In this document: piece by piece, positions 2,013-22,690 of the stretch
Layout of the letters: every line of letters begins with the position of its first letter
Position numbering within the stretch: position 1 is the first letter of the stretch
Origin: a virus
Virus record (IMG/VR): IMGVR_UViG_3300025151_000136
Coordinates: 1-35,267 of that record
Length of the DNA: 35,267 nucleotides
Strand: one strand, 5' to 3'
Notes under the pieces: generated by a model
Databases searched by the model: none
The model's input: only the letters and a program-made list of their open reading frames with translations
Told to the model about the DNA's origin: nothing
Made by a program: the position numbers and the translations under genes

Positions 2013-2213
2013 ATGAAATTGCGAATAATGAATGAAACAGGCCACACTGAACTAGAAGTATCTAGTGCAGAGATGATTGAACAGATAGCAGAACACCCAA
2101 CTCATTGGGTCTATGTTAACGGTGACATGGTAAGCAGAGAAAACATAACCAACATAGATTGGTCAACTGTTGACAATGTTAACCTAGTACCTGCAATCGT
2201 CGGCGGTTGTTAA
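2013..2213 (+). CDS. Ubiquitin-like / ThiS-MoaD-like beta-grasp protein ending in Gly-Gly-Cys (66 aa)
   Basis: The 66 residues match the size of ThiS and archaeal SAMP/MoaD proteins. The order is strand (MKLRIMNETG), strand (TELEVSS), helix (AEMIEQIAEHP), strand (THWVYVNGDMV), a turn, and a final strand NVNLVPAIVGGC. The end VPAIVGG closely resembles the C-terminal hydrophobic strand plus Gly-Gly of MoaD/ThiS/SAMP, where the last Gly is adenylated by an E1-like enzyme. One extra Cys follows the GG, so a C-terminal trim would expose it. ATG 2013 is chosen (AAGGAAG upstream); a TTG 13 codons earlier adds only a lysine-rich stretch. Partners in the window are the E1-like gene at 6728 and the JAMM peptidase at 8651. 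It could be a protein modifier, a sulfur carrier or both. Confidence 0.62.
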   Translation: MKLRIMNETGHTELEVSSAEMIEQIAEHPTHWVYVNGDMVSRENITNIDWSTVDNVNLVPAIVGGC

Positions 2214-2245: not shown

Positions 2246-2346
2246 CCCACTAGTTTTCTCTAGTGGGAGGTAACTACTATATGTTGTACTACACACCATA
2301 GTAGTCCTAGCATCGGGGCAGATGCCAAGAAGGTGAGAAGCCTTCT
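2246..2346 (+). ncRNA. Stem-loop-rich leader before the RNR gene; possible cis-regulatory RNA
   Basis: The 159-base gap 2214-2372 holds four successive hairpins. H1 pairs CCCACTAG (2246-2253) with CTAGTGGG (2260-2267). H2 pairs ACTACTAT (2273-2280) with ATAGTAGT (2298-2305). H3 pairs GCATC (2310-2314) with GATGC (2321-2325). H4 pairs AGAAGG (2328-2333) with CCTTCT (2341-2346). A TATA-like AAAATAAAT lies near 2218-2226, about 25 bases before H1, so a transcript could start at the first stem. I looked for B12-box and tRNA signatures and saw none, so it matches no RNA class I know. Control of the B12-dependent RNR or a stable ncRNA are possibilities. Confidence 0.45.
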
Positions 2347-2360
2347 AAAATCACTTATAA

Positions 2361-2375
2361 GGAGAGATAAAATTG
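2361..2375 (+). promoter_or_regulatory. Ribosome-binding site deciding a TTG start for RNR
   Basis: GGAGAG at 2361-2366 lies 6 bases before a TTG at 2373, which is taken as the RNR start. The nearest in-frame ATG choices are further from the site. The leader hairpins end at 2346, leaving this site unpaired in the drawn structure. Confidence 0.5.
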
Positions 2376-4274
2376 AAATTAGGAAATGATGTATTAGCAG
2401 AAGTCGTAGCGAATATGAAGTATGCTAAATGGTTAGAAGCAGAACAACGAAAAGAAACATGGGATGAGGTTTGTGATAGAAATCGAAACATGCATCTCAA
2501 ACATATGAGGCAAACATTAGAGTTAGATTCAGAAACCTATTCTACTATTGCAACTAGGTTATATGATGTATATGATAACTTTGTTAAAACTCAAAAGATA
2601 CTACCGTCAATGCGTTCAATGCAGTTTGGTGGTAAACCAATAGAAGTATCACCAAATAGAATATACAATTGTGCATACTTACCAATAGATAGCACTCTAT
2701 CTTTTAGTGAGTCAATGTTCTTATTGTTAGGTGGAACAGGTGTTGGTTTCTCAGTACAGAAACATCACATTGACAAGTTACCTGTTATTAGAAAACCTAC
2801 TACTGAAAGAACTTATAGATATAAAGTAGCAGACACAATTGAAGGTTGGGCTGAAGCGATTAGAGTTCTTTTTGATAGTTATACTGGTAAGAGAACTACA
2901 ATGCCTAGATTCGACTATTCAGACATAAGACCTTTAGGTGCTAGACTCAAAACAACAGGTGGAAATGCACCCGGCCCTGAACCATTAAAGAAGTGTATTG
3001 TTATCATTCAAGGAATGCTTAACGAGATGGAAGAAGGTCATAAGATTAAACCAATTGAAGCACATGATATGATGTGTTATATTGCTGATACTGTATTAGC
3101 AGGTGGCATTCGTCGTTCTGCTTTAATCAGTTTATTTAGTGCTGATGATAGAGAGATGATTAATGCTAAAGCAGGTAACTTCGCAGCAGAAGGTAATGCT
3201 CAAAGATATAGAGCAAACAATTCAGCAGTTGTATTAAGACATAGAGTTACTGAAGACTTCTTCAAAGAACTAATGTCTAATGTTGCTAATAGTCATTCAG
3301 GAGAACCCGCAGTTTATCTGACTAATGACAAAGATTGGGGTACAAATCCTTGTGTAGAGATTGGATTACGCCCCTATCAATTCTGCAACTTGTGTGAAGT
3401 AAATGTATCTAATATTGAAAGTAAGGAAGACTTACTACAACGAGTAGAAGCAGCAACATTCTTGGGTACAATGCAAGCAACTTATACTGACTTCCACTAT
3501 CTTAGAGAAGTTTGGAGAAGAAACACTGAGAAAGATGCTCTTATTGGAATAGGGATGACAGGTATTGCTAGTAATAAAGTAGATAATTCTTGGTATGCTG
3601 ATGCTGCAAACTTAGTTAAGACAACTAATGCTACTTACGCTAAGATGCTTGGTATTAACAAAGCAGCAAGAACAACTTGTGTCAAACCCGCAGGAACTAC
3701 TAGTTGTGTTTTAGGTACTTCTAGTGGTATTCATGCATGGTATGGTAAGTACTACATTAGGTCAGTTCGTGTAGGTAAGAATGAAGCAATCTATCCTTAC
3801 TTACTAGATAAACTTCCTGATTTAATTGAAGATGAAATAGGTAAGGAAGATGAGAGTGCAGTGCTATCTATACCACAAACTATCCCATACGATTATGTGA
3901 CAACAAGAGCAGATGAAACTGCTTTGGATATGTTAGAACGTGTGAAGTTTGTTTCTGAGAATTGGGTTAAAACTGGTTATCGTAAAGGTAACAATGGACA
4001 CAATGTTTCAGCAACAGTTTATGTTAAACCAACAGAATGGGAACAAGTGATTGAGTGGTTGTGGGATAATAGACATTCATACAATGGTATGTCTTTCTTA
4101 CCTTATGATGGTGGCGAGTATGACCAAGCCCCATTTCAGGAGATAGATGAAGAAAGATATAATGAAATGGTCAAACAACTACATCCAATAGATTTGACCG
4201 AAGTAATAGAATTGGAGGATACCACCAACCTTCAAGGCGAAATCGCTTGTGCAGGTGGAGCGTGTGAGATATAG
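2373..4274 (+). CDS. nrdJ: Class II (adenosylcobalamin-dependent) ribonucleotide reductase
   Basis: Reduces ribonucleotides to deoxyribonucleotides through a cobalamin-generated thiyl radical, supplying dNTPs for viral DNA. C100 (IYNCAYLP) and the FCNLCEV cysteines near 338-341 fit the active-site disulfide pair. GGTGVGFSVQ (120-129) is the conserved finger region. NPCVE at 325-329 matches the Asn-Cys-Glu radical site. PAGTTSCVLGTSSGIH (439-454) is the phosphate-binding segment. The C-terminal CAGGAC (C626, C631) is the CxxxxC shuttle pair of monomeric class II enzymes. At 633 aa it is shorter than the roughly 740-aa Lactobacillus type, and no ATP-cone is visible. No second subunit or activase lies nearby, also fitting class II. 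The start is a TTG. Confidence 0.9.
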   Translation: MKLGNDVLAEVVANMKYAKWLEAEQRKETWDEVCDRNRNMHLKHMRQTLELDSETYSTIATRLYDVYDNFVKTQKILPSMRSMQFGGKPIEVSPNRIYNCAYLPIDSTLSFSESMFLLLGGTGVGFSVQKHHIDKLPVIRKPTTERTYRYKVADTIEGWAEAIRVLFDSYTGKRTTMPRFDYSDIRPLGARLKTTGGNAPGPEPLKKCIVIIQGMLNEMEEGHKIKPIEAHDMMCYIADTVLAGGIRRSALISLFSADDREMINAKAGNFAAEGNAQRYRANNSAVVLRHRVTEDFFKELMSNVANSHSGEPAVYLTNDKDWGTNPCVEIGLRPYQFCNLCEVNVSNIESKEDLLQRVEAATFLGTMQATYTDFHYLREVWRRNTEKDALIGIGMTGIASNKVDNSWYADAANLVKTTNATYAKMLGINKAARTTCVKPAGTTSCVLGTSSGIHAWYGKYYIRSVRVGKNEAIYPYLLDKLPDLIEDEIGKEDESAVLSIPQTIPYDYVTTRADETALDMLERVKFVSENWVKTGYRKGNNGHNVSATVYVKPTEWEQVIEWLWDNRHSYNGMSFLPYDGGEYDQAPFQEIDEERYNEMVKQLHPIDLTEVIELEDTTNLQGEIACAGGACEI

Positions 4275-4604
4275 ATGCTAATTAAAGAGAAGGATTTCCG
4301 CACTTTTGAGTGGGTCATAAAAGAAAGTATAGTATATCCTAGAAGGAGATACTTTGACCAAACTTGGATGATGTATAAGCAGGGAAAGACTTCGTATAGA
4401 GCATTATATCACAACATGCGTTATCTTGTTAAAGGGGGGTTTAGTTCTTTCGAAACTATGGAAGAACTAGCCTCCCAAATAGAAAGAGATGCATGGTATC
4501 TTCATAATTATGGAGATGCTAAATATTGGGAAAATAATAAAAGGAATGATAAAAATGGTAAAAGTAAAAATAACAATCCCCTCAGTAGGGGACAATCAGA
4601 ATAG
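4275..4604 (+). CDS. Hypothetical protein, 109 aa
   Basis: Starts on the base after the RNR stop codon. It is rich in aromatic and basic residues (SIVYPRRRYFDQTWMMYKQGK) and looks helical up to about residue 88. The last 20 residues are low-complexity Asn/Lys where it overlaps the next gene by 50 bases. No family recognised; immediate coupling to RNR suggests co-expression only. Confidence 0.55.
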   Translation: MLIKEKDFRTFEWVIKESIVYPRRRYFDQTWMMYKQGKTSYRALYHNMRYLVKGGFSSFETMEELASQIERDAWYLHNYGDAKYWENNKRNDKNGKSKNNNPLSRGQSE

Positions 4605-5856
4605 TTTCATAACAAGTAGTTTTTTGTTTAGGTCTTCAAAGAAGGGTTTGTTTCCAAGAATATGGAGCATTAATCCTAGAACTAAACAATACTATACTAA
4701 TAAGCAAACAATGAATACTTTTGGTGAATTACAGTTTCAGGTGTCTAGACCAACTCTCTCTAATCTTAGAGGAGAACAAGACCCTGTTCTAACAAACACC
4801 GCTTCATTGCTTACTAATATTCTATTGACTAAGGTTCAGAACACTAACTTTCTAAACACTATCACCTTTAGATATAAAGATGGTGAAAGTATCGTAGTGT
4901 ATGGTCGTAAAGGAACTGGACACCATATTGATGGTGTTAAAATCAGTAAGAAAGATTTGGTAACTACTTTAGGGAAAATAATAATCAGAGCATCTTTTGT
5001 TCGTAGTGTTGACACTATGGATGACTATATTGACAGGGTTATTCATTTTCCTCCTAATGTTCTTCATGCTATTGAAAACAGGAGTAACTATTCGTTCTAC
5101 AACGAGGGTAGGAAACAGGAAGTTCTAATCAATACTAGAGTTATTAGTGAGAATGAATGTGCTTTAGAGATTTCAGAAGGTGTTTGGGGTGCAATTACTT
5201 TGAGGGACTTGAACGTATTCATTAACACGTTTAGATTCAATCAGGCTAAGTCTAAAACTTGGTATAGAGCAACACCTGCTAAGTTATGGGAACTACTAAT
5301 GGGAAACCCACCAACTTCATCTGAGGAGAAGTTGTGTATTGCATGGTTAATGCAAAACAGAAAGCAGAACATGGTTGAAGATAGAGCAACTAAGTTATTG
5401 TTCGATATGGATAATGAGTATCCAAATATCAGTTTAGTTCAATTCAGGAATCCATTGAACAAGGCTCTATTCGTTAGAGGTAAAGTTGCTGATTGGGTTG
5501 TTGTTGATGAAAGAAAGGGTATGAAACTTGGACATCAGAATGTAAATACATATATGATTGGTCGTAAAGGAGGTGGTAAATCTTGGAAGGGTCATTCACT
5601 TACTGGCCCAATTTGTATTGATAATATACATAAGAACTCAAGCATTGGCGACCAACTAACTGCTAGAGCATTAGCCTTAATGAATGATGTTAACTCTTCA
5701 AATAGTATCTATACTATTAGAGATTATGTCAAAGAAAGACTAGCATTAGACCCTAATGAGATTGAAACCGAATGCCGTTTAGATACAACACAGTTGAACT
5801 CTTGGACTCAAGAGAAAGAGGATAAATATAAGCAATGGAAAAAGGTGAATGCATGA
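4555..5856 (+). CDS. Hypothetical protein with a late P-loop-like motif (433 aa)
   Basis: The start at ATG 4555 (AGGAATGATAAAA upstream, MVKVKITIP strand) is preferred over the ATG at 4489, which would deepen the overlap with the previous gene. The first 200 residues look beta-rich. Near residue 346 is IGRKGGGKSW, which fits GxxxxGKS, but it lies in the last quarter, no Walker B follows, and context suggests a glycine/lysine loop rather than an NTPase. The C-terminal 40 residues are charged helix. I cannot assign a function. The gene overlaps the TFB start by ATGA. Confidence 0.6.
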   Translation: MVKVKITIPSVGDNQNSFITSSFLFRSSKKGLFPRIWSINPRTKQYYTNKQTMNTFGELQFQVSRPTLSNLRGEQDPVLTNTASLLTNILLTKVQNTNFLNTITFRYKDGESIVVYGRKGTGHHIDGVKISKKDLVTTLGKIIIRASFVRSVDTMDDYIDRVIHFPPNVLHAIENRSNYSFYNEGRKQEVLINTRVISENECALEISEGVWGAITLRDLNVFINTFRFNQAKSKTWYRATPAKLWELLMGNPPTSSEEKLCIAWLMQNRKQNMVEDRATKLLFDMDNEYPNISLVQFRNPLNKALFVRGKVADWVVVDERKGMKLGHQNVNTYMIGRKGGGKSWKGHSLTGPICIDNIHKNSSIGDQLTARALALMNDVNSSNSIYTIRDYVKERLALDPNEIETECRLDTTQLNSWTQEKEDKYKQWKKVNA

Positions 5857-6731
5857 AGTGTGTAGAGTGTGAATCAACCGATTCTACGTTTGATGATAGA
5901 TTAGGTTATCACATATGTTCTGATTGTGGTCTTGTACTTAATGTCGAAATATTCGAAGAAACATCTAGTGCAACAGAATCAGATTCTAAATACGGAATAG
6001 GTAGTACAATACGATTTGGTGATGGAAGTAAAACGTCTTCAAAATATAACCTAAGACTTAACCACATTAAGACTGAGACAAAGAGTAAGTTTTGGACAGA
6101 AGGTGATATAGCAACACATAATACTTGTATGATGTTTTTATCTCCATATAAACCATACAAACTTTCTCTCAGAAGAGAAGTAGAACACTACTATCAGGAA
6201 CTTCAACGTAATAGAGTACTGGTAGGTTTACCAACAGAAGTTAGGGCAGCAGGTTTAGCATACTTCATCTTAAAGGATGAAAGTATTTTTATCTCGCTCA
6301 AGTCTTTGCAGAAAACATCAGGAGTTCATAGAAGTAAGATAATGAGGGCTTCTAAAAAAATAGCCAAGTTCTATCGTAAGTCCCATATCTTTGGTGTTAG
6401 AGATGTACATGATGTAGTAACAGTATGTTTGGATAAGTCAGGAGCAGATATTAAAGATAGAAACCCTATCTTTGCTTTCGTTGATTATGTTTCTAATTAC
6501 TATGAAACAGTCAATGTCAGGGTTGGTAATGGTGAAATTGCAGGAGCAGTTTACATTGCATGTAAGATGTTAGATTACCCTGTACTACAAAGAGAACTAG
6601 CGTCAACAGTTAACATCAGTGAAGTAACACTGAGAATACACATAAGAAAGATATGTGAATTAATACAGATAGAAAGAACTATCTTGAATAAATATAATGT
6701 AAATGAAATAATAGGAGGAATAAGAATATGA
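5853..6731 (+). CDS. tfb: Transcription initiation factor B (TFB/TFIIB homologue)
   Basis: Recruits RNA polymerase to TBP-bound promoters in archaea. The zinc ribbon has C3, C6, C22 and C25 (MKCVECEST, HICSDCGLV). Residues 40-75 hold the reader/linker region with a typical GSTIRFGDGSK. Two cyclin-like repeats follow: about 90-175 (RVLVGLPTEVRAAGLAYFI) and about 195-290 (GEIAGAVYIACKM, then HTH-like VNISEVTLRIHIRKICELI). The length (292 aa) is close to cellular TFB. ATG 5853 is chosen over 5835 because of GGTGAA spacing and ATGA overlap. A viral TFB probably redirects host polymerase to viral promoters, together with the PC4-like protein at 10961. Confidence 0.88.
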   Translation: MKCVECESTDSTFDDRLGYHICSDCGLVLNVEIFEETSSATESDSKYGIGSTIRFGDGSKTSSKYNLRLNHIKTETKSKFWTEGDIATHNTCMMFLSPYKPYKLSLRREVEHYYQELQRNRVLVGLPTEVRAAGLAYFILKDESIFISLKSLQKTSGVHRSKIMRASKKIAKFYRKSHIFGVRDVHDVVTVCLDKSGADIKDRNPIFAFVDYVSNYYETVNVRVGNGEIAGAVYIACKMLDYPVLQRELASTVNISEVTLRIHIRKICELIQIERTILNKYNVNEIIGGIRI

Positions 6732-7318
6732 GAAAAGTAATGATAATAGGAGCAGGTGGAATTGGGAGTTATTTAGTTGACTTCTTATCTAGGATTGGTA
6801 TCTATGATATAACGGTGTTTGATGATGATAAGTTAGAAGAGAAGAATCTGACATATCAAAACTTTATGCCTGATATGGTAGACCATACTAAGGTTAATGC
6901 TCTCAATAATAGATTGAAGGTTAACGGGTTGAAGCCTATAAACCCTCAACCGTATCAAGTATTAGTAGAGAAGCAATTGAAAGGTTATGACCTAGTAGTT
7001 TGTTGTGCTGATAACTTAGCAGTAAGACGTTTACTATATCGTCAAGGCTATGGTGATGATGCAAAGATAGACTGGTTAGACCTTAGAGCGCAAGGGCGTA
7101 ATGCTGCATTGATTTCCTACAAGGTTAACGAGAATCTTGTTGATGATTTGTTAGCAGGTGCAGAAGGTTCTTTCTCTTGTCAAGGAGGAGAATGGGATGG
7201 TAGCCCTGAAGATGTTAACTGTATGCAAATCGCAATTGCAGGTATTGCAGTACAGTGGATTCAAAGATGGTGGCAATCCCCTGATTACGTTGCAGATAAG
7301 ATGGTGATAAACGTATGA
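6728..7318 (+). CDS. E1-like adenylating enzyme (ThiF/MoeB/UbaA superfamily), minimal form
   Basis: Activates the C-terminal glycine of a ubiquitin-like protein with ATP. A Rossmann P-loop GAGGIGS lies at 8-14, with acidic FDDDKLEEKNL at 31-41. N40 and Q44 stand in the family NLxRQ motif, whose Arg is replaced (NLTYQ). K55 follows. CCADN (92-96) with R100 matches the DxxDNxxxR Mg-ATP site. In PEDVNCMQIAIAGIAVQWI, C165 sits where ThiF-type enzymes carry their reactive Cys before the final helix. At 196 aa it is only an adenylation domain, with no rhodanese or UFD domain. GGAGG precedes ATG 6728, which overlaps the TFB stop. The natural substrate in this window is the GGC-ending protein at 2013. 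Confidence 0.8.
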   Translation: MRKVMIIGAGGIGSYLVDFLSRIGIYDITVFDDDKLEEKNLTYQNFMPDMVDHTKVNALNNRLKVNGLKPINPQPYQVLVEKQLKGYDLVVCCADNLAVRRLLYRQGYGDDAKIDWLDLRAQGRNAALISYKVNENLVDDLLAGAEGSFSCQGGEWDGSPEDVNCMQIAIAGIAVQWIQRWWQSPDYVADKMVINV

Positions 7319-8261: not shown

Positions 8262-8501
8262 ATGAGTGACGAAGAGAATATAGAAGATATAGATGAAGAG
8301 ATGATTGATGAAGTTATGAATGTAATTTCAACAGATGGTTATTATCAACAAGCAGAGATAGTCAAAGTAACATGTCCTGTTTGTGGTGAAGAGTTCTTAG
8401 GAACAAAAAGACATGCAGGAGCGTTCATTGCAGGTCATCGTGAATATCATGAGTTTATCAACAGTCAAGATATGATTATAGATAATATGGGTGGTATCTG
8501 A
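8262..8501 (+). CDS. Single zinc-finger protein ending in Gly-Gly-Ile (79 aa)
   Basis: An acidic helical N-terminus (1-37) is followed by a C2H2-like finger, CPVCGEEF then HREYH (about residues 41-65). The last residues are NMGGI, giving a Gly-Gly one residue from the C-terminus, like the GGC of the beta-grasp protein at 2013. The fold is a zinc finger, not beta-grasp, so this is probably chance. Confidence 0.55.
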   Translation: MSDEENIEDIDEEMIDEVMNVISTDGYYQQAEIVKVTCPVCGEEFLGTKRHAGAFIAGHREYHEFINSQDMIIDNMGGI

Positions 8502-8650: not shown

Positions 8651-9157
8651 GTGAAAGAAGAAGAAATAAAGAATGAAGAAGCAATGAAGGAGTTTGATTG
8701 GAAACAACACATCAGAGATGTGCATAATGATATGGCTGAAGATATACAATATCTTTACCCAAACAATTCAACAGAAGCCTTCCTAACTGCAATATGGAAA
8801 ATGTCAATAGACGTATTAGAAGGAATGGAAATACAGGTTATTGTAGATAACAAAGATGATTTGTACATTAGTAGTGGTACACCTGCCTTTGTATCCTTTG
8901 AAGGACATGAAGATGAATTAGTAAATGGTAAACCTATGCAAATACCTATCAAGTCTTGGATACACACACATCCTTTCGGTCATGCTTACTTTAGCAGTAC
9001 AGATTGGAAAACAATTAACACATGGAAACCTATACTAAAGTCTGCTATTGTACTTGGTGACAGTCAGTATTTAGCATATGACCCTGAAACCATACTAGCA
9101 AAGAAAGTTTTCTATGGTCTACTGGCAGAAGATAAATCTAAGGGGGAAGAGGAATGA
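8651..9157 (+). CDS. JAMM/MPN-domain metalloprotease (Rpn11/HvJAMM/Mec+-like)
   Basis: A zinc metallopeptidase that in known members removes ubiquitin-like proteins from targets or trims C-terminal tails after Gly-Gly. The full signature H-x-H-x7-S-x2-D is present: H105, H107, S115, D118 in IHTHPFGHAYFSSTD. The catalytic Glu expected about 45 residues upstream is probably E60 (LEGMEIQVIV). The order helix, strand, loop, HTHP, helix and VLGDSQYLAYD strand fits a compact MPN core. GTG 8651 is chosen because AGGAGG sits 7 bases upstream; a more distant TTG at 8597 lies inside the previous gene. The probable substrate or precursor is the GGC protein at 2013. The C-terminus is a short acidic tail. 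Confidence 0.82.
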   Translation: MKEEEIKNEEAMKEFDWKQHIRDVHNDMAEDIQYLYPNNSTEAFLTAIWKMSIDVLEGMEIQVIVDNKDDLYISSGTPAFVSFEGHEDELVNGKPMQIPIKSWIHTHPFGHAYFSSTDWKTINTWKPILKSAIVLGDSQYLAYDPETILAKKVFYGLLAEDKSKGEEE

Positions 9158-9733: not shown

Positions 9734-10078
9734 ATGAATAAAAATAAGAAGATGATAGAAGAAGCAAATGACCTTGCAAAAGGTGTTAAGATGTTAGTGA
9801 AAGAAAATAAGGAGTTAACAGACCTTGTTTGTTACATGAGGAAGATGTTAGATGATTGTGTAATTAGTAAGAATGGGATTACTGAATCAATTGATTGGAG
9901 TTCTAAGAAACTAGAGAAAGCATTTAACATTATGATGGAAGTTGAGCATGAAAAGGATATGATAAAGGAAGCAAAGCGTCAAGAAAAGACTGATAACCTA
10001 CATGTTGAAGGGATAATTGCATTCAATGACAGTCCCGCACCTACCATTGATGACTTTTATGGAGATGAAGAAATATGA
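9734..10078 (+). CDS. Coiled-coil protein, 114 aa
   Basis: Residues 1-85 form charged amphipathic helices (IEEANDLAKGVKMLVKENKE); the last 30 residues are acidic and Pro-containing (FNDSPAPTIDDFYGDEEI), like a flexible interaction tail. GGAGGAAGAATAA precedes the start. No family recognised. Confidence 0.55.
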   Translation: MNKNKKMIEEANDLAKGVKMLVKENKELTDLVCYMRKMLDDCVISKNGITESIDWSSKKLEKAFNIMMEVEHEKDMIKEAKRQEKTDNLHVEGIIAFNDSPAPTIDDFYGDEEI

Positions 10079-10566
10079 GTGATAAGACATTAACTATGGA
10101 AAATAGCAGACAAACAACACTAGCAGAATATGGTTTTGTATTCCTGATTCTAACAACTTTGTTAGCAGGTTGTACAATCCCAACTCCTGATGAAGTGTTC
10201 GATGAAGAAACACAAGCACCAAAAGAATGGAGTACAGTTAATGGTACTTTCACATTCTTGATAGATGATGCAAATAACTCTACGCAAGAAACTGTATGGT
10301 TAGATGTTAATACTACTTATGGATTAATTGAATTAGATTATTTCCATTATAATGTAACACATCTTAGTTTTGACATTGTAAACAATTCTGTTAGGTTCAA
10401 TAACTATTCCTTCAATATAGATGGTCATTTAGAACAAGATGGTTTAATTTGGAATAGTGGTTATGCACCTCAGTTTGGTAATGCAACACTTATGTTTGCT
10501 ACATTCCCCTTTGATGTAACAGTCGAATACGAAGTTAAATATCGTGTATGGAATGGTAGAGAATGA
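10075..10566 (+). CDS. Predicted lipoprotein with eight N-glycosylation sequons (163 aa)
   Basis: A hydrophobic stretch FVFLILTTLLAGC (21-33) ends in a lipobox (LAGC, C33), predicting export and lipid anchoring outside the cell membrane. The mature part is beta-rich and carries eight N-x-S/T sites (N56, N67, N68, N79, N93, N103, N110, N136), unusually dense for 130 residues. Archaea N-glycosylate such sites. A surface lipoprotein made early in infection could alter the cell surface, for example by excluding other viruses; that role is inference. ATG 10096 is an alternative start that shortens the N-terminal region before the hydrophobic core. Confidence 0.65.
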   Translation: MSDKTLTMENSRQTTLAEYGFVFLILTTLLAGCTIPTPDEVFDEETQAPKEWSTVNGTFTFLIDDANNSTQETVWLDVNTTYGLIELDYFHYNVTHLSFDIVNNSVRFNNYSFNIDGHLEQDGLIWNSGYAPQFGNATLMFATFPFDVTVEYEVKYRVWNGRE

Positions 10567-10964
10567 AGAAAGAAGCAATAACTGTTCAATTTCCTGCTCC
10601 GCTTCCTGCGGATATAACTTGTCCTATTTGTGAAGGCAATAAGTGCAAGGTTTGTGAAATGAGTGGTAAAATAAAACTAGTAGTTGATGCTAAAGTCCCG
10701 ATACAAAAAGCATTGATAGTAAAGTATGTCGCTAACAATATTAACTCAATAAGTTCAGATTTATCTAAGAACTATGGTTTAGTTCCTGAGATAGAAACAA
10801 TGGAAGTTTTCGAACATCCTGAGAAGAGAACTTATGAGATAATTAAGATTAGTAGTCTAGGGGGCGTGGTCTATATCGCCACAAGAGTTGATGATGTTGA
10901 AGCAATAAGAACGTTCACATCTCTAAAAGATTTGAATAGATTTAAGGAAGGTTGGTACGAATGA
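10563..10964 (+). CDS. Zinc-knuckle protein, DnaJ-like cysteine motif (133 aa)
   Basis: Residues 20-36 read CPICEGNKCKVCEMSGK, a CxxCxGxxCxxCxxxG arrangement resembling one half of the DnaJ cysteine-rich domain. The remaining 95 residues are mixed alpha/beta with no motif I know. ATGA overlap with the lipoprotein gene. The function is unknown; a zinc-dependent nucleic-acid or protein contact is possible. Confidence 0.55.
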   Translation: MKKEAITVQFPAPLPADITCPICEGNKCKVCEMSGKIKLVVDAKVPIQKALIVKYVANNINSISSDLSKNYGLVPEIETMEVFEHPEKRTYEIIKISSLGGVVYIATRVDDVEAIRTFTSLKDLNRFKEGWYE

Positions 10965-11191
10965 GTAAAGAATTAGAAACGGTATTAAGAATACCAAGAA
11001 ATGCAACAATGGAAATGATAGTGAAGAAAGGGCAATATTACAAAATAGATGTAGTAGATGTTAGATGGTATAGCAATGGTAAACCATCTAGAAAGGGAAT
11101 CCGAATGAATATGGATGAACTTGATATTCTACTGAAAGGATTGTCTAAGATTAATGCAAATTATAAGGTGAACTCTGATGAGTCTAATTAG
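10961..11191 (+). CDS. PC4-like single-stranded DNA-binding/transcription cofactor (76 aa)
   Basis: The core QYYKIDVVDVRWYSNGKP followed by SRKGIRMNMDELDILLKGL matches the PC4/YdbC fold: strand, VDIR-type strand with aromatic residues, G-K-P-(S/T)-x-K-G-I, then an L-rich helix used for dimerisation. PC4 proteins bind ssDNA and assist transcription or replication. ATG 10961 is chosen over 10952 because it forms an ATGA overlap with the previous stop. Presence with a viral TFB suggests a viral transcription or ssDNA-handling kit. Confidence 0.65.
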   Translation: MSKELETVLRIPRNATMEMIVKKGQYYKIDVVDVRWYSNGKPSRKGIRMNMDELDILLKGLSKINANYKVNSDESN

Positions 11192-12728
11192 ATTTGCAAG
11201 AATGTGTGAAGCAATAGAAGCCCAAGATAGAACAACAGAAAAGATTAGAGTATTAGATGAATCTCTTAGTTCATTTTCTAATCCTACTGTTGTTTTAGAT
11301 ATATTATCTCTTAACTTAGAACCTAATAATATTGGTAATAAGAGAGCGATAACATGGGTTGCTAATTCATTAGAGATGTTTGAGGATGAAGTCAAAACTC
11401 AAATAGATATGTGGAATGATTTAGGTGAAGGCATATTTATGTTTCTTGATGGTGAATGGAATAGTGATTCTAATTACACTATTAGAAATCTATATTCCTT
11501 TCTAACATTAGATTGTTCATCAATCAATAGTGATTCATATAGCATTATCAAAGAGGCAATGAATGAAATGTCTGCTTTAGAAGTTAAATGGTTTCTTCGC
11601 TATTGGTTAAGACATCCAAGAAACGGAATAGGTGAAAAAGCATTAACTCAACTATTGAAGCGTAGGTTTTCATCAGAATATAGAGATAGTTACATTAAGG
11701 TACATTCTCCTGCTGAAATATTTAGGTATTTATCTAATGGTGAAACACCACCAGTACATTCAGGTGTAGGTAAGTTCGTACAATGTTCTCTTGCAAAAAA
11801 GTTTCAACAACCATATAAGTTGCCTGTTGAGTTTCTAATTGATTACAAGTATGATGGTAATAGATATCAGATTCATAGAGATAGGGACAGTGTTATTATT
11901 TTCAATAGAAAGGGTAAGGTTGTAACTAGGCAATATCCTGATATCGTAGAATTAGTTAAAACATTTAATGCTACTACTTTTATTTTAGATACAGAGATTT
12001 ACCCTGTTATATCTAGGGGAAAGACAGAACCTTCTGAACATAAGAACCTAGCAACTAGAGTTCATTCTAAAGATATTGAGAGTGCGGTTGAGAAGTGTCC
12101 TGTTCATCTTGTGATTTTTGACATCTTATATTATATGGGTCATAGTCTAATAGAACAAAAGTACAAAGAACGTTTAATTCATATGCCTGATTTTCCCTCT
12201 GTAAACAGAGCAATATCTTTTACAGATAGGGATATAGAAAGAGCATACAATATGGCTATCAATGATGGCTTTGAAGGTATTATGATTAAAGACTTAAACT
12301 CTACTTATCAAGCGGGAAGAAGAACTAGTGCTATGGTAAAACATAAACCACCTAGAATTGATTTAGATGTTGTAATTACTAGTGCCAAATACGGTGAAGG
12401 TAAAAGAGGTAATGTATTCGGTACATTTGGTGTATCAGTTAAGGATGACTCTACATCTACTGGATTTACCCCAATAGGTTCTGTTGGTAGTGGTTTATCT
12501 GAAGGTGATTTAGTTTATCTAACAACTGAACTCAAGAAAATAGTAGAGAAGTTTTCTAGTGATGTGTTCCATGTGCTACCTAGAATTGTTCTAGAGGTTA
12601 CTTGTGATTTAATATCTAGAGATGCTGATGGTAACTATGGTCTTAGATTTCCAAGAGTTATTAGAATTAGAAATGACAAGTTCGCTAAAGAATGTAATTC
12701 TATTTTAGATGTGCAAATGATGGCTTAG
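11178..12728 (+). CDS. lig: ATP-dependent DNA ligase
   Basis: Seals nicks in duplex DNA through a ligase-AMP intermediate. Motif I KYDGNR has the adenylated lysine K224. LDTEIYP (270-276) is motif III, FDILYYMG motif IIIa, EGIMIK (366-371) motif IV and MVKHKP (386-391) motif V. Residues 1-205 are the helical DNA-binding domain and 395-516 the OB domain (GEGKRGNVFGTFGV). The length of 516 aa is typical of archaeal/eukaryotic LigD1/Cdc9-type enzymes trimmed at the N-terminus. No C-terminal PIP box is visible. It overlaps the PC4-like gene by 14 bases. Confidence 0.9.
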   Translation: MSLIRFARMCEAIEAQDRTTEKIRVLDESLSSFSNPTVVLDILSLNLEPNNIGNKRAITWVANSLEMFEDEVKTQIDMWNDLGEGIFMFLDGEWNSDSNYTIRNLYSFLTLDCSSINSDSYSIIKEAMNEMSALEVKWFLRYWLRHPRNGIGEKALTQLLKRRFSSEYRDSYIKVHSPAEIFRYLSNGETPPVHSGVGKFVQCSLAKKFQQPYKLPVEFLIDYKYDGNRYQIHRDRDSVIIFNRKGKVVTRQYPDIVELVKTFNATTFILDTEIYPVISRGKTEPSEHKNLATRVHSKDIESAVEKCPVHLVIFDILYYMGHSLIEQKYKERLIHMPDFPSVNRAISFTDRDIERAYNMAINDGFEGIMIKDLNSTYQAGRRTSAMVKHKPPRIDLDVVITSAKYGEGKRGNVFGTFGVSVKDDSTSTGFTPIGSVGSGLSEGDLVYLTTELKKIVEKFSSDVFHVLPRIVLEVTCDLISRDADGNYGLRFPRVIRIRNDKFAKECNSILDVQMMA

Positions 12729-19861: not shown

Positions 19862-21565
19862 ATGATAATATGTAAAACAGAAAATGGAATAGGATTAAGG
19901 TGGAGAGAAGGAGATGAGATACAAAGTAAGATTGTGTCTCACTCCGACTTTCAACCTTACATGTATGTACTTAGCGACCTTATTCCTGTCGGAGCGACTG
20001 ATTTTAGTTTTAAGTGTAAAGACACTCATGGTTCTTTTAACATCAAAGTAAACTTTACCCCAAGTGGTGGTGAAGTTAGCCTTGAAAAAAGACCATTACA
20101 TAAAGTAACTTGGACACCTAATAATCCTAAATATTCTAAAGATGTTAGGATTGCTTTAGAGGCTAATAACATTAAAACGTTTGAAGCAGATGTACCTTAT
20201 CATTACAGATATGCAGTTGATGAAATAAAAGAAATACCTGAGCAAAACTTGCGTAGATGGTATTGGGATATGGAATGGCAACAAGGTGGTAGGTATGATG
20301 AGTATATTACTTGTATTGTCATCTATGATAATTATGATGATGAATATCATGTCTTCGCTTGGTATCCTGAAGAGGGTAAAAATATAGTATTGAAAGACAA
20401 TGATAATTTTATCCTACATAGATATAATAGTGAACACAATATGCTTACAGGTTTCTTAGCATTCGCTATGGATAAAGAACCTGATATGCTTATCTCTTGG
20501 TTCGGATGGAAGTTCGATATACCAAAGTTGTTTACTAGAATGGTTCATCATAATATTGACCCAAGACTACTATCACCTTTTGATGAGATAACTGGTATTG
20601 GTTGGAAAAGAAATAAGCCTACTATTTGGAAGTCTAGAGTAGAAGGTTACTCTCCTGTAACTCAACCAATCAAGGGAATGATTACAGTAGCATTAGATTT
20701 GATTTTTGAAAGACAATGGAATGATGCTCAACGTGGAACATTACCTTCTCTTTCATTAGATTACGTTTCTGAGAATGTACTTGGTGATGTCAAATTAGTT
20801 AGCGAAAAGTTTCCTGACAAGAATGAGTTTTTCAGAAGAGCATGGTTAGAAGATGCAGATACATATCTTGAATATGCTTTCAAGGATGTAGAGTTAATCA
20901 AAAGAATTGATGAAGAAAACCACTGTATTGATGCAGTTCTTTCTTTACAGAGACTTTTGAAAGCACCGTTTGATGCATGTTTCTATGCTAGTAACATGGG
21001 TGGTATATATTTCATGCGTAATGCTTGGTGGAAAGCCCCTACTGGAGAGAAAGGTGAACGTAAGGAGTATGAGGGGGCAATGATATACAATCCCCTCAGT
21101 GAAGGTACAAATGGCCTTCATCGGAACGTTGCTGCTTTTGATTTTGCAGGGCTATATCCTTCAATGATAATTTCACGGAATATATCTTGGGAAACTATTT
21201 CGGAAGAACCAACAGACTTTGCAGTTAACTTAGCAATACCTAGAGATTTTAGTGAAGTCAAAAGAGAAGAGATGATGTATTTCAAAACAGATGAGTTAGG
21301 TTTACTACCTAAAGCAGTACTTGACTTGAAAGAGTTAAGAGACGAATATAAAAAGAAGATGAAACAGGCAACATCCAAAGATGAATATGCCAAGTGGAAT
21401 AACAATCAGTTAGCAGTAAAACGGCTTTCTGCGTCTTTCTACGGGATAATTGCGTATCAAGGATTTGGTTGGGCTAATGTTGATTTGGCTGCTAGTATAA
21501 CTGCTAGTGCTAGAGAAGCAATAAGGGCTGCCGCGTTTAAAGTGAGGGATATGAATGCCAATTAA
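19862..21565 (+). CDS. polB: Family B DNA polymerase, N-terminal part (exonuclease plus palm motifs A and B)
   Basis: The main replicative polymerase, first of two pieces. N-terminal domain 1-130; 3'-5' exonuclease with WDMEW (Exo I, D136/E138), GWKFDIPKL (Exo II, D219) and YAFKD (Exo III, Y338/D342). Motif A is DFAGLYPS (427-434); motif B is KRLSASFYG (520-528), where the usual Asn is Ala/Ser. The protein stops after KVRDMNAN, exactly where a normal PolB would continue into motif C. The downstream gene at 21773 carries motif C and the thumb. A 73-aa membrane-protein gene lies between. No sequence seems lost at the junction. Confidence 0.88.
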   Translation: MIICKTENGIGLRWREGDEIQSKIVSHSDFQPYMYVLSDLIPVGATDFSFKCKDTHGSFNIKVNFTPSGGEVSLEKRPLHKVTWTPNNPKYSKDVRIALEANNIKTFEADVPYHYRYAVDEIKEIPEQNLRRWYWDMEWQQGGRYDEYITCIVIYDNYDDEYHVFAWYPEEGKNIVLKDNDNFILHRYNSEHNMLTGFLAFAMDKEPDMLISWFGWKFDIPKLFTRMVHHNIDPRLLSPFDEITGIGWKRNKPTIWKSRVEGYSPVTQPIKGMITVALDLIFERQWNDAQRGTLPSLSLDYVSENVLGDVKLVSEKFPDKNEFFRRAWLEDADTYLEYAFKDVELIKRIDEENHCIDAVLSLQRLLKAPFDACFYASNMGGIYFMRNAWWKAPTGEKGERKEYEGAMIYNPLSEGTNGLHRNVAAFDFAGLYPSMIISRNISWETISEEPTDFAVNLAIPRDFSEVKREEMMYFKTDELGLLPKAVLDLKELRDEYKKKMKQATSKDEYAKWNNNQLAVKRLSASFYGIIAYQGFGWANVDLAASITASAREAIRAAAFKVRDMNAN

Positions 21566-21776
21566 AACCGCAAAGATAGATGTAGAACAACTACAAGAAG
21601 AAGTTGAAGAAATAAATAGAAAGATGATAGAAGAGTTTGCTCCATCTAGAACCGAAAAAATGATAATGAAAGCATATGTTTTACTTGATGATGTTTATGT
21701 TATTCTAAAGTATCTTGCAGTAGGTGTATTCTTCTATGGTTTAATATCTCTATTGCAGGATGTGAATATAATATGA
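21555..21776 (+). CDS. 73-aa single-pass membrane protein inserted between the two PolB genes
   Basis: Residues 8-27 are a charged helix (DVEQLQEEVEEINRKMIEEF). A hydrophobic segment VILKYLAVGVFFYGLISLL (about 49-67) predicts a membrane anchor. It overlaps the PolB N-part by 11 bases and the C-part by ATGA. No homing-endonuclease motif is seen. It may be an unrelated cargo, a remnant of the event that split PolB, or a membrane tether for the replisome. Confidence 0.6.
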   Translation: MPIKTAKIDVEQLQEEVEEINRKMIEEFAPSRTEKMIMKAYVLLDDVYVILKYLAVGVFFYGLISLLQDVNII

Positions 21777-22690
21777 AAGTAGTTTATGGACATACAGATT
21801 CTATCTACGTTAAGATGGAAGATGATAGTGTTGAGAAAGCACAACTAGTATTAGATGAGTTGAACGAACACGTTAGAGAAATATTTCCTAATGTTCTAGG
21901 TTTAGACGAACATCCTGTAACTCTTGAGTTTGAGAAGTTCTTCAAGACTCTAGGTGTAGGATGTAAGAAAAACAGAAACGCAGGGTTAATCTCATGGAAA
22001 GATGGTGAGTACCTAGATGATTTGGAGTTTACTATGACTGGTTTTACTGCAAAGAGAGTGGCAATAACTCCTCTAGCAAAGAAGATTCAGTTAGAAGTTT
22101 TAGATAGATGGGTAAAGGAAGAAACAGAAGAAGAGATAACTAACTACTTACACAATGAATACTATAATGTTGTCAATGGTAATATTGATATCTCAATGTT
22201 AGCACAACGTAGTAGATTTAGAGAAGAAAGATTCTTAGTGAAATGTAAGACTTGTATAAGAAACTTCAACAAACATACGAAGTATCATTTACATGAACTT
22301 GCTAATATTACAATAGGGAAAAAATACCCTTGTTGTAATAAACCTGAGTTCATAACTTTGAAAGGAAAAAGACCAACAATAGGTTCAGGCATTGAAGGTG
22401 TGTTATATCATAACACAAAGAATCCTGATAACATGATTGATGATTCATATCTGTATCTAAGAATTAGAGACATACATGATACTTACTTTCATCCGTTAAA
22501 CAGGAATGATGTCATACCTAACTATGTTTCTGCAATGACTCAAAAGGATTTACTTGAGTACACTCCTGATTACAACCATTATGCTAGTTCTATAATTAGC
22601 AAAGCAGAGCCTATTTACGAAGCAATGGGTTGGGATATATCACAAATCTACCGTGATAGGAAACAAAGCAGTATGGAGGATTGGTTTTGA
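21773..22690 (+). CDS. polB: Family B DNA polymerase, C-terminal part (motif C, thumb, PIP box)
   Basis: Begins MKVVYGHTDS, so motif C (YGHTDS, 5-10) lies at the very start. The first Asp of YGDTDS is His, the second, metal-binding Asp (D9) is kept. KKNRNAGL (65-72) is the downstream conserved region, usually KK(R/K)Y. Residues 158-188 contain CKTC and YPCC (C158, C161, C187, C188), a zinc-finger-like insertion unusual for PolB. The last residues QSSMEDWF (298-305) are a PIP box for PCNA. It presumably assembles with the product of 19862-21565. Confidence 0.85.
   Translation: MKVVYGHTDSIYVKMEDDSVEKAQLVLDELNEHVREIFPNVLGLDEHPVTLEFEKFFKTLGVGCKKNRNAGLISWKDGEYLDDLEFTMTGFTAKRVAITPLAKKIQLEVLDRWVKEETEEEITNYLHNEYYNVVNGNIDISMLAQRSRFREERFLVKCKTCIRNFNKHTKYHLHELANITIGKKYPCCNKPEFITLKGKRPTIGSGIEGVLYHNTKNPDNMIDDSYLYLRIRDIHDTYFHPLNRNDVIPNYVSAMTQKDLLEYTPDYNHYASSIISKAEPIYEAMGWDISQIYRDRKQSSMEDWF

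What the first reader, a model, noticed from the sequence alone, without database searches (positions are those of the whole stretch)
2013..2213. Modifier ends in Gly-Gly-Cys: an encoded precursor or a CysO-cysteine mimic
The last residues are VPAIVGGC, one Cys beyond the Gly-Gly that E1-like enzymes use. Ubiquitin-like precursors carry short tails removed by a peptidase, and the JAMM enzyme Mec+ removes Cys from CysO-GG-Cys. The virus has a JAMM gene 6.4 kb downstream, so JAMM may mature this protein. Alternatively the Cys itself may be used, for example in a thiol reaction.
Basis: partly seen in the sequence, partly recalled or inferred. Interest (0 to 1): 0.7.

Follow-up and report, generated by a model that had tools for sequence, protein, structure and literature searches.

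The report
Capped viral ubiquitin-like protein precursor
A marine virus with archaeal-type genes makes a tiny ubiquitin-like protein whose active Gly-Gly end is hidden under a removable one- or two-residue cap, here a cysteine, and it also carries the activating enzyme and the peptidase that could uncap and recycle it; the cysteine itself is not special.

Summary
The ORF at 2013-2213 ends VPAIVGGC*, and an intact JAMM gene starts 6.4 kb downstream. In 57 distinct viral homologues the Gly-Gly never varies. The cap residue changes often: Y 13, C 10, Q 4, SL 4, SQ 4, NQ 4 and others. A sister virus with an almost identical protein has Tyr. Three homologues end directly in GG, yet their viruses keep a JAMM. 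Caps contain no K, D or E.

So the 'encoded precursor' half of the idea is supported; the 'CysO-cysteine mimic / functional thiol' half is not. Likely mechanism: the viral JAMM trims the cap, the viral E1 activates the exposed GG, and the JAMM also reverses conjugation. Published precedents are C. subterraneum ubiquitin (Cys directly after GG, removed by its Rpn11 homologue) and capped sulfur carriers. UbL, E1 and JAMM are colinear in 60 of 60 distinct loci. No biochemistry was possible; modifier versus sulfur carrier stays open.

Unexpected: a zinc-finger protein encoded between E1 and JAMM also ends in a near-invariant GG plus one uncharged residue (36 of 37). It may be a second substrate.

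The parts
2013..2213 (+). ubiquitin-like (beta-grasp) protein, 66 aa, capped precursor ending VGG-C
   Evidence: ORF; ThiS Pfam E=0.0045, below the curated cut-off; AF2 model bb-a-bb-a-b, pLDDT 84.7; Foldseek best = ubiquitin, VIA best = MoaD/FUBI/SAMP2/TtuB/ubiquitin, tied at Z 5-5.8
2202..2207 (+). Gly-Gly codons (GGC GGT), invariant
   Evidence: 57/57 distinct homologues
2208..2210 (+). Cys cap codon (TGT)
   Evidence: cap position: C 10, Y 13, Q 4, dipeptides 22, none 3 of 57
6728..7318 (+). E1/ThiF-like adenylating enzyme, 196 aa, no extra domains
   Evidence: Pfam ThiF 1e-17; GxGGxG, D32, D34, N40, K55, D95, R100, C92, C93, C151 invariant in 45 sequences; profile matches UBA5, Uba4, MoeB, Cap2
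8262..8501 (+). small zinc-finger-like protein ending NMGG-I, encoded between E1 and JAMM
   Evidence: 36/37 homologues end [MLV]GG + one residue; always between E1 and JAMM, 33/33; divergent copies end MGGV and MGGP
8651..9157 (+). JAMM/MPN+ metallopeptidase, 168 aa
   Evidence: E-HxHP-SxxD invariant; PDB profile matches AMSH-LP 2e-5 and C. subterraneum Rpn11 homologue 1.5e-4; fold: Foldseek 6fno 8.3e-4, VIA P. furiosus JAMM1 Z 9.8
5835..6731 (+). TFB-like transcription factor, overlaps the E1 start by 4 bases
   Evidence: Pfam Zn_Ribbon_TF 1.9e-8
2373..4274 (+). B12-dependent ribonucleotide reductase directly downstream of the UbL (context only)
   Evidence: NCBIfam RTPR 1e-83

Best explanation
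The protein is made as a capped precursor of a ubiquitin-like protein. Step 1 (inferred): the virus's own JAMM metallopeptidase cuts after Gly65 and removes the one- or two-residue cap, here a single Cys. Step 2 (inferred): the exposed Gly-Gly carboxylate is adenylated by the virus's E1 and probably passed to a Cys (C151 is the best candidate). Step 3 (inferred, less sure): the activated protein is attached to viral or host proteins, and the same JAMM removes it again. Shown by sequence: GG is invariant; the cap is nearly always present, short, uncharged and rapidly changing; all three genes are linked; both enzymes keep most or all of their signature residues. The Cys is one of several tolerated cap residues, not a reactive group in its own right.
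For: Cap length 0/1/2 in 3/32/22 of 57 distinct homologues, never 3 or more; the JAMM of the same viruses has 0-86 residues after its last conserved column. No K/D/E among 54 cap-terminal residues, against 37% of last residues in 1,723 other ORFs; with ~31 independent cap changes this is about 7e-7. UbL-E1-JAMM same strand and order in 60/60 distinct loci; JAMM in 30/30 records searched whole. JAMM model aligns best with P. furiosus JAMM1, the partner of SAMP2, and with AMSH and the C. subterraneum Rpn11 homologue. Precedent: C. subterraneum pro-ubiquitin has Cys79 directly after GG; its Rpn11 homologue cuts exactly after GG, Cys79Glu blocks cutting, and isopeptide-like conjugates are cut too (PMC6043591). 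Capped sulfur carriers with 'MV' or a single 'C' after GG occur in Streptomyces and are held to need a protease, as shown for QbsD (PMC6006322).
Against: Three homologues have no cap (L056 and L101 share a branch; L061 is separate) but keep the JAMM, so cap and JAMM are not strictly tied. The E1 has Tyr where UBA5 has Arg in the N-x-x-R motif (Y43 in 63/67), so its chemistry may differ. No E2 was found, but that search had no positive control. No experiment; host peptidases could also trim the cap.
Confidence: 0.68

Rival explanations
1. Capped sulfur carrier rather than protein modifier: after JAMM trimming, the E1 makes a GG-thiocarboxylate that donates sulfur to a metabolite, tRNA or nucleotide, as in QbsE/PdtH-type systems.
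For: Weak ThiS matches; VIA best rows include MoaD and TtuB; capped sulfur carriers with C or MV after GG are known (PMC6006322); E1 C151 and the CC at 92-93 are invariant.
Against: No rhodanese, no ATP_bind_3 (TtuA/Ncs6), no MoaE and no cysteine synthase in 30 viral records, each with ringing controls; no metabolic enzyme other than the RNR is next to the cassette. Host enzymes could supply the sulfur, so it is not excluded.
Confidence: 0.3
2. The JAMM only removes UbL (or host SAMP) from targets; the cap is incidental and is trimmed by any host peptidase, or caps are nearly neutral.
For: JAMM is kept in three viruses whose UbL has no cap; cap residues change at least 31 times on the E1 tree; Borg elements carry many JAMM proteins read as deSAMPylases (PMC12660748).
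Against: A neutral tail should sometimes be longer or charged; here it is 1-2 uncharged-or-Arg residues in 54/57 with no K/D/E. Viral E1 and UbL come with the JAMM in every locus, unlike a lone deSAMPylase.
Confidence: 0.2
3. CysO-cysteine mimic: the protein carries Cys to the JAMM, or the C-terminal Cys thiol itself reacts.
For: This protein, nine other distinct homologues with a lone C, and the caps SC and CN contain Cys.
Against: 45 of 57 distinct homologues have no Cys in the cap, including the ~97% identical sister proteins with Tyr; no PF00291 enzyme in 30 viral records. Releasing a ribosomally encoded Cys makes no net cysteine (reasoning).
Confidence: 0.03
4. Decoy: the cap keeps the viral UbL from the host's own E1, so it binds or clogs host SAMP machinery without being used as a modifier.
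For: A cap must block E1 use until it is cut (established E1 chemistry); cap presence is favoured.
Against: The GG and a dedicated viral E1 are kept in all 60 distinct loci, which a decoy would not need.
Confidence: 0.07

Closest known systems
Caldiarchaeum subterraneum ubiquitin precursor and its Rpn11 homologue (PMC6043591; PDB 6fno, 6fnn)
   Same: Pro-form with Cys immediately after GG; separate JAMM peptidase of the same fold that also removes conjugates; cap chemistry matters (Glu after GG blocks cutting).
   Different: Cap of nine residues; operon with E2 and E3; cellular. The viral cap is 1-2 residues and no E2 or E3 was identified.
QbsE/QbsD, PdtH/PdtG and PtmS2-S3/PtmS1 capped sulfur carriers (PMC6006322, PMC1779556)
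   Same: GG followed by a 1-2 residue cap (CF from general knowledge; MV and C in PMC6006322) plus a JAMM partner and an E1-like enzyme.
   Different: The siderophore systems have an E1 with a rhodanese domain and thioacid-making enzymes; no rhodanese was found in the viruses.
Haloarchaeal SAMP / UbaA / HvJAMM1 and P. furiosus JAMM1-SAMP2 (PMC4443979; PDB 5lda)
   Same: Archaeal UbL + E1 + JAMM set without an E2; best structural match of the viral JAMM (Z 9.8) and among the best of the UbL (Z 5.2).
   Different: As far as I know, H. volcanii SAMPs end directly in GG; here a cap is nearly always present and all three genes are viral.
CysO / Mec+ of Mycobacterium tuberculosis
   Same: UbL with GG followed by Cys and a JAMM that cuts there.
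   Different: CysO is encoded without the Cys (general knowledge), which a cysteine synthase adds; in the viruses the Cys is encoded, replaceable and without that synthase.
Bacterial antiphage UbL systems (Bil/Bub, CBASS Cap2-Cap3)
   Same: UbL or UbL-like conjugation with E1 and JAMM; E1 and JAMM profiles or models reach Cap2, Cap3 and BubCD.
   Different: Host-encoded defence with E2 domains; this one is virus-encoded with a minimal E1.
Haloarchaeal arCOG06308: TBP-like-fold protein with a C-terminal GG next to a MoaD-like UbL (PMC2948915)
   Same: A precedent for a non-beta-grasp small protein with a C-terminal GG in a UbL neighbourhood, like the zinc-finger protein here.
   Different: Different fold, and no cap residue described.

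Membership tests
beta-grasp ubiquitin-like / ThiS-MoaD | beta-grasp fold | tested here: met
   AF2 bb-a-bb-a-b, pLDDT 84.7, pTM 0.62; Foldseek best rows are ubiquitins (E 1.9e-3, prob 0.99), VIA Z 5-5.8 to MoaD, FUBI, SAMP2, ubiquitin; moderate scores
beta-grasp ubiquitin-like / ThiS-MoaD | C-terminal Gly-Gly | tested here: met
   57/57, followed by a cap in 54/57
ThiS (PF02597) as a named family | profile score above the curated cut-off | tested here: not met
   17.9 bits against 22.5; TIGR01683 14.9 against 37.45
E1/ThiF superfamily | nucleotide-binding GxGGxG plus catalytic Asp/Lys | tested here: met
   Pfam ThiF 64.5 bits against 28.1; G8, G10, G11, G13, D32, K55, D95 invariant
E1/ThiF superfamily | Arg of the N-x-x-R motif (common, not universal; from general knowledge) | tested here: not met
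   Tyr at that position in the alignment to UBA5, Y43 in 63/67
JAMM/MPN+ metallopeptidase | E ... HxHP ... SxxD zinc site | tested here: met
   invariant in 45 sequences, including those of tail-less viruses L056 and L101
JAMM/MPN+ metallopeptidase | MPN fold | tested here: met
   AF2 pLDDT 88; VIA Z 9.8 P. furiosus JAMM1, 9.2 AMSH
JAMM/MPN+ metallopeptidase | zinc-dependent cleavage after Gly-Gly | not testable with these tools
   needs purified protein
CysO/Mec+ cysteine pathway | Cys-specific adduct with a cysteine synthase partner | tested here: not met
   cap varies; no PF00291 in 30 records, controls ring in 14/14
QbsE/PdtH capped sulfur carrier system | 1-2 residue cap after GG plus JAMM | tested here: met
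QbsE/PdtH capped sulfur carrier system | E1 with or near a rhodanese/sulfurtransferase | tested here: not met
   E1 ends after its ThiF domain; no PF00581 in 30 records, controls ring in 13/14
E2-containing ubiquitin system | E2 enzyme | tested here: inconclusive
   Prok-E2_B not found, but no control genome rang
magrovirus (marine archaeal Caudoviricetes) | DNA PolB, ATP ligase, ERCC4 nuclease block | tested here: met
   all three in the window; the set is described in PMC10160649; no named magrovirus record was compared

The most novel reading that the evidence does not exclude
The cassette has two Gly-Gly-capped substrates of unlike fold: the ubiquitin-like protein and a small zinc-finger protein with a near-invariant C-terminal GG plus one uncharged residue, encoded between E1 and JAMM. 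The JAMM would uncap both, and the E1 would activate one or both, making the zinc finger a second modifier or a substrate adaptor attached through its own C-terminus.
Probability: 0.18. Interest if true: 0.8.

Novelty: new variant of a known kind. Interest (0 to 1): 0.52.

Why it matters
It gives uncultured marine viruses with archaeal-type genes a complete minimal UbL, E1 and JAMM cassette. I found no UbL homologue in 50,697 deposited phage records, and no paper in the held library joined magroviruses with ubiquitin. The natural cap series (C, Y, Q, NQ, SL, none) is a ready-made substrate panel for asking how JAMM peptidases choose the residue after Gly-Gly, and whether cap removal and deconjugation are separable jobs. 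The zinc-finger protein with its own GG-X end would be a new type of substrate if confirmed.

Tried and rejected
CysO-cysteine mimic: rejected on cap turnover and absence of the synthase. Tail tied strictly to JAMM presence: rejected, since tail-less UbLs coexist with a JAMM. PADLOC defence systems: UbL and JAMM match nothing, E1 only generic E1-E2 models. Rfam on the window: no match at gathering thresholds. PDB sequence search with the UbL profile: nothing credible. E2 search uninformative. Zinc finger in deposited phages: no match; it was not found in a large part of the UbL viruses, so it is not an obligatory part. Searches for published accounts of a virus-encoded UbL/E1/JAMM set in archaeal viruses found only Borg deSAMPylases; one broad search on bacterial systems returned irrelevant papers.

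Full report
WHAT IS THERE. The ORF 2013-2213 (+) has a good ribosome-binding site and encodes 66 residues ending VPAIVGGC*. It scores weakly against ThiS (E 0.0045, below the curated cut-off). An AlphaFold2 model from 50 viral homologues is a beta-grasp (pLDDT 84.7). Foldseek ranks ubiquitins first (E 1.9e-3). The second aligner ties MoaD, FUBI, P. furiosus SAMP2, TtuB and ubiquitin at Z 5-5.8. I therefore call it a ubiquitin-like protein without placing it in a named subfamily.

THE TAIL. Profile searching gave 70 viral loci. Among 57 distinct sequences in the held loci, Gly-Gly is invariant. It is followed by one residue in 32, two in 22 and none in 3; never more. Caps are Y 13, C 10, Q 4, NQ 4, SL 4, SQ 4, F 2, NY 2 and eleven others once each. 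The closest relatives of the window protein differ by two residues, one of them the cap (Tyr instead of Cys). On a tree of the linked E1 proteins the cap changes at least 31 times and 'C alone' at least 8 times (quick tree, so the counts are approximate). No cap contains K, D or E, whereas 37% of last residues in 1,723 other ORFs of the same contigs do. With 31 independent draws the chance of none is about 7e-7. So cap presence, length and lack of these charges are kept while identity drifts. That fits a P1' position read loosely by a peptidase. It does not fit a functional cysteine.

THE ENZYMES. The E1 at 6728-7318 is a bare ThiF domain with the nucleotide-binding glycines, D32, K55, D95 and three invariant cysteines (C92, C93, C151). 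Tyr stands where UBA5 has Arg in the N-x-x-R motif, so its activity should be tested, not assumed. The JAMM at 8651-9157 keeps E60, H105, H107, S115 and D118 in all 45 aligned sequences. Its model aligns best with P. furiosus JAMM1 (Z 9.8), AMSH (9.2), Cap3 (8.8) and the C. subterraneum Rpn11 homologue (8.4). UbL, E1 and JAMM lie on one strand in the same order in 60 of 60 distinct loci, and JAMM is found in 30 of 30 records searched whole.

L056, L101 and L061 encode UbLs that end directly in GG. L056 and L101 are sisters on the tree; L061 was not on that tree, but its E1 resembles that of L049, so I count two origins. All three viruses still carry a JAMM; in L056 and L101 the catalytic residues were checked. 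Cap removal is therefore not the only reason to keep JAMM; removal of the UbL from targets is the natural second role (inference).

PRECEDENT. C. subterraneum pro-ubiquitin has Cys79 immediately after its Gly-Gly. Its Rpn11 homologue cleaves precisely after Gly-Gly and also cuts isopeptide-like conjugates; Cys79Glu stops cleavage (PMC6043591). This matches both the Cys here and the absence of acidic caps. Streptomyces sulfur carriers with one-residue (C) or two-residue (MV) caps are known and are expected to need a protease, following QbsD (PMC6006322). Iyer and colleagues predicted JAB processing of phage UbLs in 2006 (PMC1779556). The cap principle is thus known; its use in this viral cassette is what I could not find described.

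MODIFIER OR SULFUR CARRIER. Thirty viral records contain no cysteine synthase, rhodanese, tRNA-thiolation ATP_bind_3 or MoaE family, with control genomes ringing each time. This leans away from a self-contained sulfur pathway, but host enzymes could fill in. The E2 search had no working control. I keep the question open, about 2:1 for a modifier.

A SECOND GG-X PROTEIN. Looking for chance C-terminal GG ends exposed a family. The ORF at 8262-8501, a CxxC...H...H zinc-finger-like protein encoded between E1 and JAMM, ends NMGGI. 36 of 37 homologues end [MLV]GG plus exactly one uncharged residue (I 20, A 8, Q 5, V 2, T 1), after a variable linker. Divergent copies end MGGV and MGGP. It is always between E1 and JAMM where scored (33/33) but was not found in a large part of the viruses. 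Possible roles are a second JAMM/E1 substrate, an adaptor that docks by a UbL-like tail, or an unrelated motif; the MGGP copy argues mildly against cleavage. A GG-ended protein of another fold beside an archaeal UbL gene has been noted before (PMC2948915).

HOST AND GENOME. The window carries PolB, ATP ligase, an ERCC4 nuclease, an RFC-like clamp loader and TFB. PMC10160649 lists the first three among genes that almost all magroviruses encode. The virus is therefore probably a magrovirus-like virus of marine archaea, but I did not compare it with a named magrovirus genome. The window is nearly identical to the start of IMGVR_UViG_3300026258_000007. Relatives in the genome collection lie in MAG contigs binned as Altibacter and Maricaulis that carry parts of the same cassette; I read these as mis-binned viral contigs.

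VERDICT. Observation confirmed. Interpretation half right: a capped precursor most likely matured by the viral JAMM, with Cys an interchangeable cap. No step of the mechanism has been shown biochemically.

Noticed in passing
8262-8501 (+): Zinc-finger-like protein between E1 and JAMM ends in near-invariant GG plus one uncharged residue in 36/37 homologues.
   Followed up: partly
19862-21565, 21555-21776, 21773-22690 (+): DNA polymerase B looks split: the first ORF carries the exonuclease and part of the polymerase domain, the third begins near YGHTDS, and a small ORF with a hydrophobic stretch lies between.
   Followed up: no
6845-6859 (E1 residues 40-44): The viral E1 family has Tyr where UBA5 has Arg in the N-x-x-R motif, in 63/67 sequences; effect on ATP use unknown.
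   Followed up: no
2214-2372: Intergenic stretch between UbL and the B12-dependent ribonucleotide reductase; several relatives share a motif like 'gtcttagcagtagttagattgactgcc' after the UbL stop. No Rfam match.
   Followed up: partly
L056, L101: The two viruses with cap-less UbL sit on a long shared E1 branch (0.75) and no zinc-finger protein was found between their E1 and JAMM.
   Followed up: no
L121 (Kolpuevirus OQ198718.1), 2343-4642: Crass-like phages carry a ThiF-like 'thiamine biosynthesis protein' next to a gene annotated as metalloprotease domain protein.
   Followed up: no
L108, L110 (Methanoperedens contigs), around 10000-11200: Distant E1 relatives with the same YSCQ motif; the next gene downstream ends in a bare C-terminal GG.
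   Followed up: no
L105-L107, L113-L115: Contigs in MAGs binned as Altibacter and Maricaulis carry the viral cassette genes; probably mis-binned virus sequence in reference genomes.
   Followed up: partly
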